This document shows positions 12,920 through 23,698 of a DNA stretch of 64,000 nucleotides, in pieces. The translations under genes were made by a program, and so were the position numbers. Every line of letters starts with the position of its first letter. Within the stretch, counting starts at the first letter, position 1. The notes beneath the pieces are model-generated. The model worked only from the letters and a program-made list of their open reading frames with translations. It had not been told where the DNA came from and made no database searches. This DNA is from Deltaproteobacteria bacterium (GTDB taxonomy: Bacteria > Myxococcota_A > UBA796 > GCA-2862545): contig SBGP01000106.1 in NCBI GenBank assembly GCA_006226595.1, forward strand, positions 186,001 through 250,000, read 5' to 3'.

Positions 12920-13351
12920 CTAGCCGAGGTCGTCGACCAGCCGCCCCAGCGCATCACGGGTCATCGCCCAGTCCTTGGGCTTGCGGCCCTCGTCGCTCGC
13001 TTCCCAGCGGCGGATGTCCACCTTGCGGGTACCGCTGACCTCGACCTCGACGAACTCGCGCCCACGCATCTCGTCGGGCTTGGTGCGCAGGATGGCGCCG
13101 CCGAGCCTCGGGTCCACCTCGACCGCGTGGATGCGCTCGGGCAGGACGCCGGCGAGCTGGCCGGGCAACTCTTCCGCGGCGGTCTCGATGGGCACGTCGC
13201 GTCCGCGCTCGATCTTCACGCCGCGCACCCGCACACCGACGGGCCCGCTGGTGACCACGTCCACGTGGGCCTTCGCACCGCCGTGCTCCGCGGTGATCGT
13301 GCCCTCGGACTTCTTGTCCAGAGCCTCGGCGAGGGCGTCGGCGAGGCTCAT
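12920..13351 (-). CDS. Small protein at the end of the prkA-spoVR operon
   Basis: 143 residues, no signal peptide, beta-rich with charged termini. Phrases include VVTSGPVGVRVRGVKIERGRD and IHAVEVDPRLGGAILRTKPDE. The start overlaps the spoVR stop by ATGA (13348-13351), so it is translationally coupled to the stress operon. No family was recognised. Confidence 0.75.
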   Translation of the reverse strand: MSLADALAEALDKKSEGTITAEHGGAKAHVDVVTSGPVGVRVRGVKIERGRDVPIETAAEELPGQLAGVLPERIHAVEVDPRLGGAILRTKPDEMRGREFVEVEVSGTRKVDIRRWEASDEGRKPKDWAMTRDALGRLVDDLG

Positions 13352-14880
13352 CCGTCCTCCTTGCGCTCGCTCTTCTTGAGCTCGGTGCCGTCGTGGCTCA
13401 GCCGGATCGGCTTGCCGTCGACGACCGTGTCGAGGTGCACCGAGCGCCGCCAGATGGTGGCGAGGTTCTTGAGGGTGACCGCGGCCCAGTCGAGCTGGAT
13501 GTCGAGGCCCTCGTGGGTGTGCTCGAGCATCAGCTCGCCGCGGTTGAACGCGTTCGCGTCGGTGACCATGACCCGCGGCGTGCCGCGACTCGCGACCATC
13601 TGCAGCAGGCCCTTCTTCACGTCCGCGAAGTCGCGGGAGTCGATGACCCACTCCCGAGCGCGCTTGTCGTAGGCGGTGGTGAAGAAGCCCTGCTGGCGGC
13701 AGAAGTCTGCCGTCAGGAAGGTATCGAGGAAGGTGATGTCGTTGTGGGTGCGGCGGACCTGGAAGATCTTCTCGCGACCCTCCATCGCCCCCGTGTCCCA
13801 CCGACGCCGCTCGCGCGGGTCGTCGCAGTCGACCCAGTCCTTGCCGTGCTGGCCCTTGTCCCAGCGCTCCTCGATGTGCCGCCACAGCTCGACGCCCATC
13901 TTGTAGGGGTTGAGCTGACCCGGCCGCATCGCGGTCGTGCCCGAGTGGTGGTCGCAGTAGTCGATGACCTCGCTGTCATCGAGGATGTCCTGCGTCATCA
14001 TCTTCGTGTGCCAGTACGTGGCCCAGCCCTCGTTCATGATCTTGGTCTGGCCCTGGGGCGCGAAGTACATCGCCTCGTCGCGGATGATCTGCAGGATCTG
14101 GTGCTGCCACGACTCGAGCGGTGCCGCCTCGAGCAGGAAGCCGAGCACGTCGCGCACGGGCTCCTCGGGGTAGCGCCGCATCTTCGCGAGCTCTTCGGCC
14201 TTCTTCTCGCGCTGGGCGGCCAGGAACTCGGGCGGGTTGATGTGCTTGTCCATGTAGCCCTTGGCCGGGATCTTCCCGACCACTTCCCGGTTCGTGTGCG
14301 CTTCCTCGTACTCGGCCTGCGAGGTGCGTCGCTCACGCCGGATGTGCGGGCTGTGCGGATCGACGAGGTTGTCGAGCGACAGGCACAGGTCGATGAAGCT
14401 CTCGACCGGGGACTGCCCGTGCTTGTCCATCAGCTTGCGGACCTTGGCCGCGTGGTTGGCCATCTGGTCGAGCATCTTGCGGTTCGTCGGCGCGAACCAC
14501 AGGTTGTTCTTGAAGAAGTCGACGTGGCCGAACACGTGGCTCATCACCAGCTTCTGGTCGACGACGAGGTTGTTGTCGAGCAGGTAGGCGTAGCTGGGAT
14601 CCGTGTTGATCACCATCTCGTAGATCTTCGACAGACCGTACTCGTAGCTGGTCTGCATCTGGATGTAGTCCATGCCCCAGCGCCAGTGCGGGTAGCGGGT
14701 CGGAAACCCGCCATACGAGGCGATCATGTTGATCTCCTCGTAGGTGCACATCTCGAAGATGGTCTCGAAGAAGTCGAGTCCGTAGCCCTTGGCGAGGGTC
14801 TCGATCTTCTGGCGCCAGTCCTCGAGCTCTTGCGGGAGCGCGCGACCTTCGCGGAGGAAGCGGTTGGAGATCAGCGCCAT
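13348..14880 (-). CDS. SpoVR family protein
   Basis: 510 residues, the usual length for SpoVR/YcgB. Characteristic segments are [59 protein letters not shown] and [10 protein letters not shown]. SpoVR is needed for spore cortex formation in Bacillus. In proteobacteria the gene follows prkA and a DUF444 gene and belongs to the general stress or stationary-phase response; the biochemical activity is unknown. The ATG at 14880 lies 2 bp after the DUF444 stop. In a myxobacterium a link to development would be plausible but is not shown. Confidence 0.95.
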
Positions 14881-14882
14881 GG

Positions 14883-15965
14883 CTACCTTCCCTTCCCGAG
14901 CAGGTCCTTGATCGAGTCCATGATCGCGTCCCGGTTGGGCACGCGGGACAGGGTCACGGCCTCTTCGTCGCCGAAGGCCTCGAGCAGATCCTTGATGAAC
15001 TGGCCGGAGCCGTACTGGCTGTCGACCTGGGCGTACGAGAACTGGTTCGACATCGGGATCAGCGTGTTCTTGAGCAGCTCGATGCATGCCCGCGTGTCGC
15101 TGCCCGACCAGTTGTCCCCGTCGCTGAAGTGGAAGGGGTAGATGTTCCACTCGGCCGGGTCGTAGTCCTTGGTGAGGATCTCGACGCACAGCTTGTAGGC
15201 CGAGGAGATCAGCGTGCCTCCGCTCTCCCGCGTGTGGAAGAAGGTGTGGCGGTCGACCTCGCGGGCGCTGGCATCGTGGATGATGAACCGGGTCTCGACG
15301 TCCTTGTAGTGATGGGACAGCCAGGTATCGATCCAGAAGGCCTGATTGCGCACGATCTCCTTCTGCTCGTTCCCCATCGAGCCGGACACGTCCATCATGT
15401 ACACGACGACCGCGGCCGAGCGGGGCTCGCGCTCGACGACGTAGTGCCGGTAGCGCTTGTCCTCCTTGATCGGGATGATCACGGGACGCTCGGCGTCGAA
15501 GCCGCCGCTGGCGATGGTCCGCTGGAGCGCCCGTCGGTAGGTGCGCTTGAAGTGTCGGAGCGACTCGGGGCCCTGCTGAGCGATGCCCTTGTAGCGGTTG
15601 CGCTCGGCCATCGACTCTTTGGTGCCCTTGGGCTCGATGCGCGGCAGCTCCAGCTCCTCGCCGAGGATCTCCGCGAGCTCGTCGAGGGAGACGTCGACCT
15701 CGAGCACGTGCTCGCCGGCCGCGTCCCCCGCCTCCTGGCCCTGGCCGGCGCCATCGCCCTGCTCGCCGTCACCCTGGCCGACGCCGGACTTGTTCTCGCC
15801 GTAGCGAAGCCGGGGAATGCCGATCTGCGGCAGGGGAATGGACACGACGTTCTTGCCCTTGCGGCCGATGAGCTCGCCCGAGGACATGTACTTCTTGAGG
15901 TCCTTGCGGACCTTGCCCTTCACGATGTCGCGGAAGCGACCGAGGTCGCGGTCGATGTTCAGCAT
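14883..15965 (-). CDS. DUF444 (YeaH-type) protein
   Basis: 360 residues. An N-terminal basic region with [24 protein letters not shown] is followed by a low-complexity Gly/Gln/Asp linker (~60-85) and a VWA-like domain with [14 protein letters not shown] (DxSxS metal site). The latter portion carries [20 protein letters not shown] and FSDGDNW. It is the constant middle partner of prkA and spoVR. Start chosen at 15965 behind GGGAGGCG; an in-frame ATG four codons upstream is possible. A chaperone-like role together with PrkA is inferred from conserved neighbourhood only. Confidence 0.95.
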
Positions 15966-16029
15966 CGCGCCTCCCATCCGCAGGCGGGCGACGCCAGGCG
16001 GCGCCCTGCAAGTCGGAAGCTCGACGTCA

Positions 16030-18063
16030 TCAGGAGCCCTTCGCGGCATCACCGCGCGCGAAGATCGACGCCACGTACTGGAGCACGTCGCCGGCGCAGA
16101 TCTGGCAGTAGCCGTGGCGCTCGATCAGCCGCTGCTTCACGACCTCGATCTTCGCCTGGGTCTCCTCGTCCATCGACTGGCTGACCAGGCTCGTGAGCTT
16201 GATGCTGTCCTTGCTGTCCTCGAACAGCTTCAGCTCGAGCGCGCGGTGCAGGCGCTCGTTCATGGTGTAGTCGAAGGTCTTTCCGTCGAGGGCGAGGCCG
16301 GCGATGTAGTTCATCAGCTCGCGGCGGAAGTCGTCCTTGCGGGCCTCCGGGATGTCGATCTTCTCCTCGATCGACCGCATCAGCCGCTCGTTGGGCTCCT
16401 CGTAGGCACCGGTGAACGCGTTCTTCACCCGCTCCTTGAGCACGTAGGCCCGCAGGTTGTCGATGTAGTTGTCGCTCATGCGCTTGAGCGCGGACTCATC
16501 GGCGGCAATCGCCTTCTGGACCTCGTTCTTGACGATGTCCTCGTACTCGGTCTTCACCACGCCGAGCAGCTCGCGGTAGGCCTCGCGCTGGTCGTCGCTG
16601 GAGAGCAGGCTGTGGTGGGTGAGCCCGCTCTCGAGCTCGTTGAGCACCATGAAAGGGTTGAGGCAGGCGATGTCCGGGTCCTTGACCAGGGAGTTGGAGA
16701 TCTTGTCCTGCACGAAGCGCGGGGAGATGCCCTCGAGGCCCTCGCGGCGGGCGCTCTTGCGCAGCTCCTTCACGTGGTCCTCGGTGAACCCGGGAATCGC
16801 GCGACCGTCGTAGAGCTTGGCCTTCTGGAGCAGGGACAGCTGGTGGTTGCTCGGCTGCTCGAGGCGGGTGAGCACCGCCCAGGTCGCGGCCATGCCGATG
16901 GTGTGCGGGGCCACGTGGGCGCCGACGGTCTCGGCCCGGAAGTCCTTCTCGTAGATCCGGGCTTCCTGGCTCGGGCGCGTGATGTACGGCACGTCGATCT
17001 TGATCGTGCGGTCGCGCAGCGCCTCCATGTACTCGTTGTTCTGCAGGCGCCTGTACTCGGGCTCGTTGGTGTGCCCGAGGATGACCTCGTCGATGTGGGT
17101 CTGGGCGAACTTCTTCGGCTTGATCCGGTGCTCCTGGCTCGCGCCGAGCAGGTCGTAGAGGAAGGCCACGTCGAGCTTGAGCACCTCGATGAACTCGATG
17201 ATGCCGCGGTTCGCGACGTTGAACTCACCGTCGAAGTTGAACGCGCGTGGGTCGGAGTCGCTGCCGAACTCGGCGATGAGTCGGTAGTTGATGTCGCCGG
17301 TGAGCTCGGTGGAGTCCTGGTTCTTCTCGTCCTTCGGCTGGAAGGTGCCGATGCCGACGCGGTCCTTCTCGGAGAGGACCAGGCGCCGCACGCGGATGTG
17401 CTGGGCGAGCTTGAGGAAGTCGCCGCCGACCTCGCGCATGACCTGGCGGTACATGTGGCGGCACACCGGGCACAGGTCGCCCTCGAGCTTGACCTTGTAG
17501 CCGTCGGCGTTGGCGTTCACCTTGGCGAGGATGTCGTCCTTGACCTCGTCGGGGAGCAGGCGCAGCGGCTCCTCGTGCATGGGGCAGGGGGTCTCCTTGC
17601 CGTCGAGCACCCACGAATAGGTGTACAGGCGCCCCTCTTCGGTGCGCGAGTACCGCTCGAGGCCCTTCTTGAACAGCCGCGCGATGGTCGACTTGGCCGA
17701 GCCGACCGGGCCGTGGAGGAGGATGACGCGCTTCTCGGGCCCGAAGCCGAGCGCCGCGGCGCGGAGCACGCGCACCAGCTTCATCAGGTGGATGTCGATG
17801 CCGAACACCGCGTCGGCCCCGTCGTCGAAGGGGTCGTCGAAGAAGTGATACCGGCGGATCACCTTCTTGTACTCGGTGTACTCGGAGTAGCCGTAGCTCT
17901 CGATCAGGTCGTACAGCCGCTGATAGGCGTTGCGAGCGATCGACGGGGAGGCTTCGACCATGCCGAGGTAGTCCGCGTAGCTGCCCTCCCAGAGCAGCTC
18001 CTGGAAGCGGGCCGTGTCCTGCTTGGCTTCGATCAGTCCAAGGAGGTCGGTGGTTTCGGTCAT
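16030..18063 (-). CDS. prkA: PrkA family serine protein kinase / AAA+ ATPase
   Basis: 677 residues. An N-terminal AAA-like domain has Walker [10 protein letters not shown] (residues 118-126) and the zinc-like cluster CPMHEE ... CPVCRHMY; the C-terminal PrkA domain follows. The family is reported to phosphorylate serine on a ~60 kDa protein in Bacillus, and some members act as an AAA+ protease. It heads the operon prkA - DUF444 - spoVR - small gene, with 64 bp before the second gene. No -24/-12 or clear sigma-70 promoter was spotted in the 329 bp upstream. Confidence 0.95.
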
Positions 18064-20340: not shown

Positions 20341-21171
20341 CTACCGCCCGTCACTCCGCGCCAACAGCCAGGCCTCCGACACTTCGACGGTGGCGATTCG
20401 CTCGACCGGTCCGACGAGCAGGCAGTCGAGCTCGGGGCTCACGTCGACGTGCAGGATGCCCCCGGGCATGCGCACCTCGATGCGTCCCGGCAACAGGCGA
20501 CCGAGCTTCACGCCGGCGGCCGCGGCGGCGCAGGACGAGCTTCCCGAGGCCTGGGTCGGGCCCGCTCCGCGCTCCCAGATCCGGATCTCGAGGGTCTGAG
20601 CGTCGATGGCGCGGGCGATCTGCACGTTCGTCCGGTTCGGGAACCACGGATGTGTCTCGAGCGCCTCGCCCCACTGGCGCCACGGCACCTTGCCCGGGTC
20701 CTCGTCGACGAACACGACGCAGTGCGGGTTGCCGACGGAGAGCGCGGTGGCGTGCAGGGTGAGGCCGCCGAGCAGGTCGATCTCGCGCTCGATCAGCTCG
20801 TGGTCCACCGGGACCTGGTCCGGCGCGAAGCGGGCCCGCCCCATCTCCACCGAGATCAGCGGCTCGCCGACCGTGCACCGCGCGAGCTCGAAGCCGGTCC
20901 ACACGGTGAAGGTCTCGGGTGCACCGCCATCGCGGAGCCAGCGGGCGAAGATGCGCAGGCCGTTGCCGCTCTTCTCGGCGACCGAGCCGTCCGGGTTCCA
21001 GATGCGCACGCCATAGTCGCCCTCTCCGGGCGCGGTGGGCTCGAGGATGCCGTCGCCGCCGACGCCCGTGTGCCGGTCGCAGATCTCCCGGACGAGGGCC
21101 GGGTCCATGGGCTCGCCGCTCTCGAGGACGAGGTAGTCGTTGCCCAGACCGTGGGCTCGCGCGAGTCTCAT
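20341..21171 (-). CDS. Diaminopimelate epimerase-like protein lacking both catalytic cysteines
   Basis: 276 residues with clear DapF hallmarks: HGLGNDY (7-13), NPDGS (59-63), GNGLR (69-73), VGNPHCVVF and IWERGAGPT (198-206). DapF converts LL- to meso-diaminopimelate for lysine and peptidoglycan synthesis, using one cysteine from a CGNG motif and one from an ACGTG motif. Both are serine here: Ser68 (AGC) in KSGNGLR and Ser209 (TCG) in QASGSSS. It may be a serine-based or functionally divergent member, so the gene symbol is withheld. Good ribosome site (GGAGGCGC) before the ATG. Confidence 0.8.
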   Translation of the reverse strand: MRLARAHGLGNDYLVLESGEPMDPALVREICDRHTGVGGDGILEPTAPGEGDYGVRIWNPDGSVAEKSGNGLRIFARWLRDGGAPETFTVWTGFELARCTVGEPLISVEMGRARFAPDQVPVDHELIEREIDLLGGLTLHATALSVGNPHCVVFVDEDPGKVPWRQWGEALETHPWFPNRTNVQIARAIDAQTLEIRIWERGAGPTQASGSSSCAAAAAGVKLGRLLPGRIEVRMPGGILHVDVSPELDCLLVGPVERIATVEVSEAWLLARSDGR

Positions 21172-22954: not shown

Positions 22955-23698
22955 ATGATCGTCGCCGACGAGCGAAATCCAAGGGCCATGGCCCTGAAAG
23001 CCGCGCTCGCTCCCATGCTGAAGCCGCAGCCGGAGGACCTGTGCCTGGTGATCGGCGGTGACGGCTTCTTGCTGCACACGGTGCACACCCACGGCCTGGA
23101 CCTGGCATACCTGGGCCTGAATGCGGGCACCCTTGGCTTTCTGCTCAACGACGTGGTCGACGTCGAGCGCACGGCCAAGCTGATCAACGCCGGGCGCTAT
23201 CAGCGGCGCCGGTTCCCGGTCCTCGAAGGGCGTGCGACGACGGTGGGCGGCGACGTGCACGCGCTCACCGCCGTGAACGACATCTACCTGGAGCGGGCGA
23301 GTGGCCAGACCGCGCGACTCGAGCTCACCTTCGACGGGCACCTCGCCGTCGAGGCGCTGGTCGCCGACGGCATCATCTTCTCCACCGCGGTGGGCTCGAC
23401 CGGCTACGCGTTCTCCGCCGGCGCGACCGCGGCGCACCCCACGCTGTCCACGCTGACGGTGACCCCGATCTGCCCGCACCAGCCGCGCTTGCCGCCGATC
23501 ACCCTGCCGCGTGGGAGCCGGGCCGAGGCCCGGGTGATCTCGCCCGAGCGGCGCCCGGTGCGCGCGGTGGCGGATGGTCGCCAGCTCGAGGACGTGGTGC
23601 ACCTCGAGGCCGCGCTCGGCGAGGAGCGCCTGTGTCTCGCATACATGGAGGGGCACGACTTCACCGCGCGCATGATCGACAAGCTGATGCGCGCCTAG
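22955..23698 (+). CDS. nadK: NAD kinase
   Basis: 247 residues; phosphorylates NAD to NADP in the cytoplasm. Visible are the GGDG motif (VIGGDGFLLHTVH), LGLNAGTLGFLL, the LTAVNDIYL block (family usually xLNE) and the conserved GSTGYAFSAGA (family GSTAYxxSAGG). The last two motifs each carry a small change (Asp for Glu, Gly for Ala). Shorter than the usual 270-300 residues because the N-terminal strand is trimmed. GAGGAGGCATC precedes the ATG. Confidence 0.88.
   Translation: MIVADERNPRAMALKAALAPMLKPQPEDLCLVIGGDGFLLHTVHTHGLDLAYLGLNAGTLGFLLNDVVDVERTAKLINAGRYQRRRFPVLEGRATTVGGDVHALTAVNDIYLERASGQTARLELTFDGHLAVEALVADGIIFSTAVGSTGYAFSAGATAAHPTLSTLTVTPICPHQPRLPPITLPRGSRAEARVISPERRPVRAVADGRQLEDVVHLEAALGEERLCLAYMEGHDFTARMIDKLMRA

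What the first reader, a model, noticed from the sequence alone, without database searches (positions are those of the whole stretch)
20341..21171. DapF-like protein with serine in place of both catalytic cysteines
The fold motifs of diaminopimelate epimerase are intact, but the CGNG cysteine is Ser68 (AGC) and the ACGTG cysteine is Ser209 (TCG). The two Ser codons belong to different codon families, so these are unlikely to be sequencing errors. A Ser/Ser pair implies changed chemistry, another substrate or no catalysis. I have a vague memory of similar Ser/Ser forms in other phyla, so a distinct subfamily may already exist.
Basis: partly seen in the sequence, partly recalled or inferred. Interest (0 to 1): 0.6.

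Follow-up and report, generated by a model that had tools for sequence, protein, structure and literature searches.

The report
DapF epimerase with two catalytic serines
This gene belongs to a large, old branch of a cell-wall and lysine enzyme (diaminopimelate epimerase) in which both textbook catalytic cysteines are serines, and because many bacteria have no other copy, serine probably does a job thought to need cysteine.

Summary
The gene (minus strand, 20341-21171, 276 aa) is a full-length DapF homologue with Ser68 (AGC) and Ser209 (TCG) exactly where the two catalytic cysteines belong. Every residue known to grip diaminopimelate (DAP) is kept. It is not a local oddity. It belongs to a separate Ser/Ser clade (99% branch support with both motifs left out of the tree) found in about 15 phyla. 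Of 241 DapF proteins read, 129 are Ser/Ser, 111 Cys/Cys, one Ser/Asn, and none mixed Cys with Ser.

The genome has no other DapF and no DAP dehydrogenase, yet it keeps a meso-DAP-type MurE and a DAP decarboxylase. In one Bacteroidota family, 40 genomes each carry exactly one DapF (21 Ser/Ser, 19 Cys/Cys, never both). The Ser/Ser genes there mostly adjoin lysA, often with dapL on the other side, and none of those 21 genomes has DAP dehydrogenase.

Best reading: a working DAP epimerase in which two serines at helix N-caps replace the thiol pair. The in vivo role is strongly inferred; activity and chemistry are untested. 'Another substrate' or 'no catalysis' is disfavoured where it is the only copy, but stays open where a Cys/Cys copy coexists. 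I found no published description in the open-access papers searched.

The parts
20341..21171 (-). CDS of the Ser/Ser DapF homologue, 276 aa, ATG start, TAG stop
   Evidence: PF01678 and TIGR00652 matches; 46-66% identity to single-copy orthologues in the same order
20968..20970 (-). Ser68 codon (AGC), at the place of the first catalytic Cys (Cys73 of H. influenzae, Cys75 of Anabaena DapF)
   Evidence: predicted at the N-cap of helix 69-81
20545..20547 (-). Ser209 codon (TCG), at the place of the second catalytic Cys (Cys217 of H. influenzae, Cys224 of Anabaena DapF)
   Evidence: predicted at the N-cap of helix 210-222
20950..20976 (-). first motif E-K-S-G-N-G-L-R-I (residues 66-74); K67 and I74 separate the Ser/Ser clade from Cys/Cys (Met, and Cys or Ala)
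20530..20550 (-). second motif A-S-G-S-S-S-C (residues 208-214); S212 (Gly in Cys/Cys) separates the clades

Best explanation
The gene encodes this organism's only diaminopimelate epimerase. It converts L,L-DAP to meso-DAP for MurE (peptidoglycan) and LysA (lysine). It belongs to an old Ser/Ser branch of the DapF family in which both catalytic thiols are replaced by serine hydroxyls. Each serine sits at the N-cap of a central helix (69-81 and 210-222), on opposite faces of the substrate alpha-carbon. [quoted passage not shown] The substrate's alpha-carboxylate and distal amino acid are held as in ordinary DapF. Shown: the sequence, clade, single-copy status, pathway context and predicted fold. 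Inferred: DAP epimerase activity in vivo (strong) and the Ser/Ser acid-base chemistry (moderate). How serine (solution pKa about 16) is activated is not explained; co-changing residues (Tyr13, Lys67, Ile74, Gln184, Ser212) are candidates.
For: (1) It is the only PF01678 gene in a 97% complete 7.2 Mb genome. 34 of 38 relatives have exactly one hit, and all 30 read are Ser/Ser. (2) The pathway around the step is present in this genome: DapD-like (279 bits, below that model's cut-off; an adjacent dapC-dapD-dapE operon in order member G024), a LysC-LysA fusion (308.8 bits) and MurE with the meso-DAP motif DNPR. No Ddh. (3) Of 50 genomes with a Ser/Ser copy from many phyla, 34 have no other DapF. 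Of 45 single-DapF genomes tested (44 read as Ser/Ser), 22 have LysA and 38 have MurE over the curated cut-off, and none has Ddh over the cut-off. (4) In one Bacteroidota family 40 of 41 genomes have exactly one DapF: 21 Ser/Ser, 19 Cys/Cys, never both. LysA lies within 1.5 kb of 19 of the 21 Ser/Ser genes and DapL of 10; none of the 21 has Ddh. (5) DAP contacts listed for Anabaena DapF (Asn13, Asn66, Asn77, Asn164, Asn197, Glu215, Arg216; PMC12039745) correspond to N11, N59, N70, N148, N182, E200, R201, conserved in both clades. (6) The Ser codons switch between AGY and TCN at least 9 and 7 times on the tree with no Cys or Thr seen, which implies strong selection for serine. (7) Model pLDDT 94.9; best PDB match is Anabaena DapF 9mro, TM 0.90. 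(8) Precedent: a proline-racemase-superfamily 4-hydroxyproline epimerase with a Ser/Cys pair is active (PMC4113996).
Against: Cys-to-Ser single mutants of ordinary enzymes keep under 0.1% activity (PMC8225329) or are greatly reduced (HisR, PMC11602996), so serine is expected to be a poor base. No member of the clade was found with a measured activity. Some genomes carry both kinds (Enterobacterales, Lachnospiraceae, some Myxococcota), so at least those Ser/Ser copies may do something else. In the window itself the gene is not beside other DAP genes. Half of the Ser/Ser-only genomes tested lack a LysA over the cut-off.
Confidence: 0.72

Rival explanations
1. The Ser/Ser protein is not the DAP epimerase. 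It does another reaction on a DAP-like amino acid (another epimerisation, or an elimination as in Ser/Thr 3-hydroxyproline dehydratase), and an unrelated, unrecognised enzyme makes meso-DAP.
For: Loss of a thiol normally all but abolishes DapF-type activity. A Ser/Thr relative in the proline racemase superfamily is a dehydratase. Several lineages keep a Cys/Cys copy beside the Ser/Ser one. In Lacrimispora the Ser/Ser gene adjoins a D-Ala-D-Ala ligase gene.
Against: It would need an unknown epimerase in every Ser/Ser-only lineage. One-for-one alternation with Cys/Cys dapF in one family and placement between dapL and lysA fit DAP epimerase directly. All distal DAP contacts are kept.
Confidence: 0.14
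2. It is a DAP epimerase, but the acid/base pair is not the two serines: other residues (for example Tyr13, Lys67, or the invariant Cys31) or bound water do the proton transfer.
For: Tyr13 and Cys31 are 100% conserved in the clade and Lys67 is 89% conserved, against 15%, 64% and 0% in Cys/Cys proteins.
Against: Ser68 and Ser209 are placed at the N-caps of both catalytic helices, where the cysteines sit in ordinary DapF. Both are invariant through repeated codon-class switches. Cys31 is also common in Cys/Cys enzymes, where it is not the catalytic residue.
Confidence: 0.12
3. The protein binds DAP without turning it over (regulator or relic), and the organism has moved to L,L-DAP in its wall and in LysA.
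For: Binding residues are kept while catalytic residues changed. Actinobacterial walls with L,L-DAP exist (established knowledge, not tested here).
Against: LysA acts on the D-centre of meso-DAP (established knowledge). MurE carries the ordinary DNPR motif. A relic would not hold both serines invariant across a clade with repeated codon switches.
Confidence: 0.05

Closest known systems
Canonical Cys/Cys diaminopimelate epimerase DapF (TIGR00652; Anabaena 9MRO, H. influenzae 2GKE, Arabidopsis 3EJX)
   Same: Whole fold (TM 0.90 to 9mro), length, DAP-contact residues, helix N-cap positions of the two catalytic residues, pathway place
   Different: Both catalytic cysteines are serines; Tyr13, Lys67, Ile74, Gln184, Ser212, Met235 and Pro60 replace Phe, Met, Cys/Ala, Glu, Gly, Leu and Ala; a separate clade
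Ser/Cys 4-hydroxyproline 2-epimerases of the proline racemase superfamily (PMC4113996)
   Same: A serine as one of the two acid/base residues in a two-base epimerase of the same superfamily fold
   Different: Only one Cys is replaced; different substrate and family (hydroxyproline epimerases and relatives match at only 12-17% identity in the fold search)
Other DapF-like racemases: HisR/CntK (histidine), DcsC (O-ureidoserine), PddB (diaminobutyrate)
   Same: DapF fold and cofactor-free stereoinversion
   Different: They use a Cys/Cys pair and none is the organism's DAP-pathway enzyme; Cys-to-Ser mutants of HisR and PddB lose nearly all activity
Engineered DapF mutants C73S and C217S (PDB 2Q9H, 2Q9J)
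   Same: Ser at one catalytic position in a DapF fold (listed)
   Different: Single artificial mutants, described as hindered in catalysis (PMC12039745); not natural double-Ser proteins with co-changed surroundings

Membership tests
DapF (diaminopimelate epimerase) homology family | Sequence match to PF01678 / TIGR00652 over the curated cut-off | tested here: met
   148.2 bits (cut-off 34.7) and 193.8 bits (cut-off 114.65)
DapF (diaminopimelate epimerase) homology family | Two-domain DapF fold | tested here: met
   AlphaFold2 model pLDDT 94.9, TM 0.90 to 9mro
DapF (diaminopimelate epimerase) homology family | Residues that bind both ends of DAP | tested here: met
   N11, N59, N70, N148, N182, E200, R201 (and G210) conserved in both clades
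DapF (diaminopimelate epimerase) homology family | Place in the DAP pathway | tested here: met
   Only DapF in the genome, LysA and MurE present, Ddh absent; dapL-dapF(S/S)-lysA clusters elsewhere in the clade
DapF (diaminopimelate epimerase) homology family | L,L-DAP to meso-DAP activity | not testable with these tools
   needs an enzyme assay
Canonical thiol/thiolate (Cys/Cys) DapF | Two catalytic cysteines | tested here: not met
   Ser68 and Ser209
Canonical thiol/thiolate (Cys/Cys) DapF | PROSITE active-site signature N-x-[DN]-[GS]-[SENGFT]-x(4)-C-[GI]-N-[GA]-x-R | tested here: not met
   The window protein fails only at C; 0 of 129 Ser/Ser proteins match, 126 of 129 match once C is read as S; 77 of 111 Cys/Cys proteins match (signature as quoted in PMC8225329)
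Ser/Ser DapF clade (described here) | Falls in the clade separated from all Cys/Cys proteins | tested here: met
   99* branch with motif columns removed
Proline racemase / hydroxyproline epimerase (PRS) | Best match to the PRS family rather than DapF | tested here: not met
   DapF structures rank first; PRS enzymes only at 12-17% identity; the only Pfam hit is PF01678

The most novel reading that the evidence does not exclude
A whole natural class of cofactor-independent amino-acid epimerases performs two-base alpha-proton transfer with a Ser/Ser pair. It forms one old clade spread over about 15 phyla and can stand in for the Cys/Cys enzyme in an essential pathway, so the thiol/thiolate pair is not required for this chemistry.
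Probability: 0.55. Interest if true: 0.8.

Novelty: new variant of a known kind. Interest (0 to 1): 0.65.

Why it matters
DapF is a textbook case of thiolate acid/base catalysis on a very weak carbon acid and an antibacterial target pursued with thiol-reacting inhibitors. A natural clade without the thiols, used as the only DapF by many lineages, would show that a hydroxyl pair can do the job and make the activation mechanism testable by comparing the two clades. It would also predict insensitivity to thiol-directed inhibitors and oxidation, and it flags database entries named 'diaminopimelate epimerase' that lack the accepted catalytic residues.

Tried and rejected
Frame or alignment artefact: rejected. 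Sequencing error: rejected. A second Cys/Cys dapF elsewhere in the genome: none. DAP dehydrogenase as a bypass: absent. A replacement cysteine: no Cys is specific to the clade; Cys31 is invariant but also in 64% of Cys/Cys proteins, and Cys214 is replaced by Ser/Thr in part of the clade. Searches in the plasmid collection gave only Cys/Cys homologues among the five read, E. coli genomes gave no match, and phage hits were weak and not read. DapL of the plant type is absent from the order; the succinylase cluster is there instead. Ten literature searches found no description of a natural Ser/Ser DapF; most subscription papers and all preprints were not searchable.

Full report
WHAT IS THERE. The ORF lies on the minus strand, 21171 to 20341, 276 aa, ATG to TAG. 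It matches PF01678 (148 bits) and the NCBIfam DapF equivalog TIGR00652 (193.8 bits against a cut-off of 114.65) over its whole length, and solved DapFs at E down to 4e-45. In those alignments the catalytic cysteines fall on Ser68 (AGC, 20970-20968) and Ser209 (TCG, 20547-20545) without gaps nearby.

NOT LOCAL. Among 38 genomes of the same genus, family and order, 34 have a match, each exactly one. All 30 that were read carry EKSGNG-type and ASGSS-type motifs. A scan of 84,980 species genomes found the same double replacement in records named Myxococcota/Deltaproteobacteria, Dadabacteria, Bacteroidota (Prolixibacteraceae, including the isolate Tangfeifania diversioriginum), Chloroflexi, Planctomycetota, Lentisphaerota, Verrucomicrobiota, Armatimonadota, Gemmatimonadota, Methylomirabilota, Spirochaetota, Bacillota (Lachnospiraceae), Enterobacterales (Rahnella, Ewingella, Mangrovibacter) and others. 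Many of these are MAGs, so single phylum labels should not be leaned on. Of 241 DapF proteins read in one alignment, 129 are Ser/Ser, 111 Cys/Cys and 1 Ser/Asn (Faecalicatena). None is Ser/Cys or Cys/Ser. A few loci in that set are second reads of the same gene; the non-redundant set is 96 Ser/Ser and 103 Cys/Cys.

ONE CLADE. A maximum-likelihood tree of 100 divergent proteins, built with both motif stretches (residues 64-76 and 205-216) left out, puts all Ser/Ser proteins plus the Ser/Asn one on one side of a single branch with SH-aLRT 99. The root is not inferred, so this shows one division, not the direction of change. Besides Ser68 and Ser209, positions 67 (Lys/Met), 74 (Ile against Cys/Ala), 184 (Gln/Glu), 212 (Ser/Gly), 55, 60, 235 and 13 (Tyr/Phe) separate the clades. 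Residues that contact DAP in Anabaena DapF (Asn13, Asn66, Asn77, Asn164, Asn197, Glu215, Arg216; PMC12039745) are the window's N11, N59, N70, N148, N182, E200 and R201 and are conserved in both clades.

SELECTION FOR SERINE. At both sites the clade uses both serine codon families: 69 AGY and 27 TCN at site 68, 15 AGY and 81 TCN at site 209, in 96 non-redundant genes. That needs at least 9 and 7 switches on the tree. AGY and TCN cannot interconvert by one base change without passing through another residue (in practice Cys or Thr), yet neither is seen at these positions in the clade. That is strong constraint on serine itself.

DOES THE CELL NEED IT. The window's genome has no other PF01678 gene and no DAP dehydrogenase. 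It has MurE (470.7 bits) with the TSDNPRTEDP motif (DNPR is the meso-DAP signature; established knowledge), a fused aspartokinase/DAP decarboxylase (LysC-LysA) and a DapD-like gene on the same contig (279 bits, under that model's cut-off). A relative in the order shows dapC-, dapD- and dapE-like genes in a row (G024). So L,L-DAP is probably made and meso-DAP is used, and the only candidate for the step between is this protein.

THE SAME ELSEWHERE. Of 50 Ser/Ser-bearing genomes, 34 have no second DapF and 16 have more than one match. Of 45 genomes with a single DapF (44 of them read as Ser/Ser), 22 have LysA over the cut-off, 38 have MurE over the cut-off, and none has Ddh over the cut-off. The clearest test is the family of Tangfeifania. 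Forty of 41 genomes have exactly one DapF; read one by one, 21 are Ser/Ser and 19 Cys/Cys, and no genome has both. LysA lies within 1.5 kb of 19 of the 21 Ser/Ser genes and DapL within 1.5 kb of 10. Ddh occurs in one of the 40 genomes, and that one is Cys/Cys. In Bacteroides and Monoglobus a Cys/Cys dapF sits directly beside dapL, so the two kinds occupy comparable gene neighbourhoods. In a Chloroflexi genome the Ser/Ser gene is the only DapF and also adjoins dapL.

HOW IT MAY WORK. The model (pLDDT 94.9) places Ser68 and Ser209 at the N-caps of helices 69-81 and 210-222, as the cysteines are in DapF, with the closed Anabaena enzyme as best match (TM 0.90). The simplest mechanism is the ordinary two-base proton transfer with hydroxyls in place of thiols. 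Against it stands the chemistry: in ordinary enzymes a single Cys-to-Ser change leaves under 0.1% activity (PMC8225329) or a greatly reduced one (HisR, PMC11602996). For it stands a precedent in the superfamily: a 4-hydroxyproline epimerase with a Ser/Cys pair is active, and in a Ser/Thr relative the Ser is held by an Asn three residues on (PMC4113996). In the Ser/Ser clade the residue three after Ser209 is Ser212 (Gly in Cys/Cys), a comparable place; that parallel is inference. Glu-to-Gln at 184, two residues from the DAP-binding Asn182, would remove a negative charge that may lie near the site; also inference.

WHAT STAYS OPEN. Activity has not been measured. Sixteen of the 50 genomes hold more than one DapF-like match (Enterobacterales, Lachnospiraceae, Spirochaetes and others), and some Myxococcota families also hold both kinds. 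There the Ser/Ser copy may be redundant or specialised (for example beside a D-Ala-D-Ala ligase gene in Lacrimispora). The only Ser/Asn protein is in such a genome.

NOVELTY. Homology to DapF is not in doubt, so this is not a new family. It fails the defining catalytic feature and the PROSITE signature of canonical DapF and forms its own clade, so I file it as a new variant that works like DapF, not as a canonical DapF. Annotation by TIGR00652 would still name these proteins DapF because they score over its cut-off. I found no paper describing them in the open-access library, which lacks most subscription journals.

Noticed in passing
G001 (same genus as the window's genome, 97% complete): No DapF and no DapD match at all, although MurE and LysA are present; both genes lie on one contig in G000, so an assembly gap is possible, or a real loss.
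   Followed up: no
L074:3973-5852 (Lacrimispora), also L072, L085: A Ser/Ser dapF abuts a D-Ala-D-Ala ligase gene in genomes that also have a Cys/Cys DapF (and, in L074's genome, Ddh): a possible specialised role of the second copy.
   Followed up: partly
L071:5001-5828 (Faecalicatena faecalis): The only Ser/Asn member (EKSGNG, MANGTGAC), in a genome with a separate Cys/Cys DapF; perhaps drifting or changed in function.
   Followed up: no
L173:2075-4840 (G000:C117): The DAP decarboxylase of this genome is fused to aspartokinase (AA_kinase, ACT and Orn_DAP_Arg_deC domains in one ORF).
   Followed up: partly
window residue 31 (codon 21081-21079, minus strand): Cys31 and Tyr13 are invariant in all 96 non-redundant Ser/Ser proteins but not in Cys/Cys ones; reason unknown.
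   Followed up: no
window 13348-18063, minus strand: Three consecutive ORFs look like the SpoVR / YeaH (UPF0229) / PrkA kinase trio, judged by eye from the translations only.
   Followed up: no
window 22955-23698, plus strand: An ORF that looks like NAD kinase lies about 1.8 kb from dapF; a similar ORF is beside the Ser/Ser dapF in L033 and on the contig of L037.
   Followed up: partly
L304-L319 (family of Tangfeifania): A divergent Cys/Cys DapF type (MCGNGGRC, ETLACGTGITA) is the single DapF in 16 genomes, alternating with Ser/Ser and with ordinary Cys/Cys types in one family.
   Followed up: partly
L276 (NZ_OY725930.1), L114 (NZ_CP019447.1): Records filed as plasmids carry chromosome-like housekeeping blocks (dapF-dapL-glutamine synthetase; hemCD-cyaA-dapF-xerC-uvrD), so they may be misassigned chromosome pieces.
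   Followed up: no
L064 (record named Bacteroides fragilis MAG): Its dapL-dapF(Ser/Ser)-lysA neighbourhood matches Prolixibacteraceae rather than Bacteroides; the name is probably wrong.
   Followed up: no
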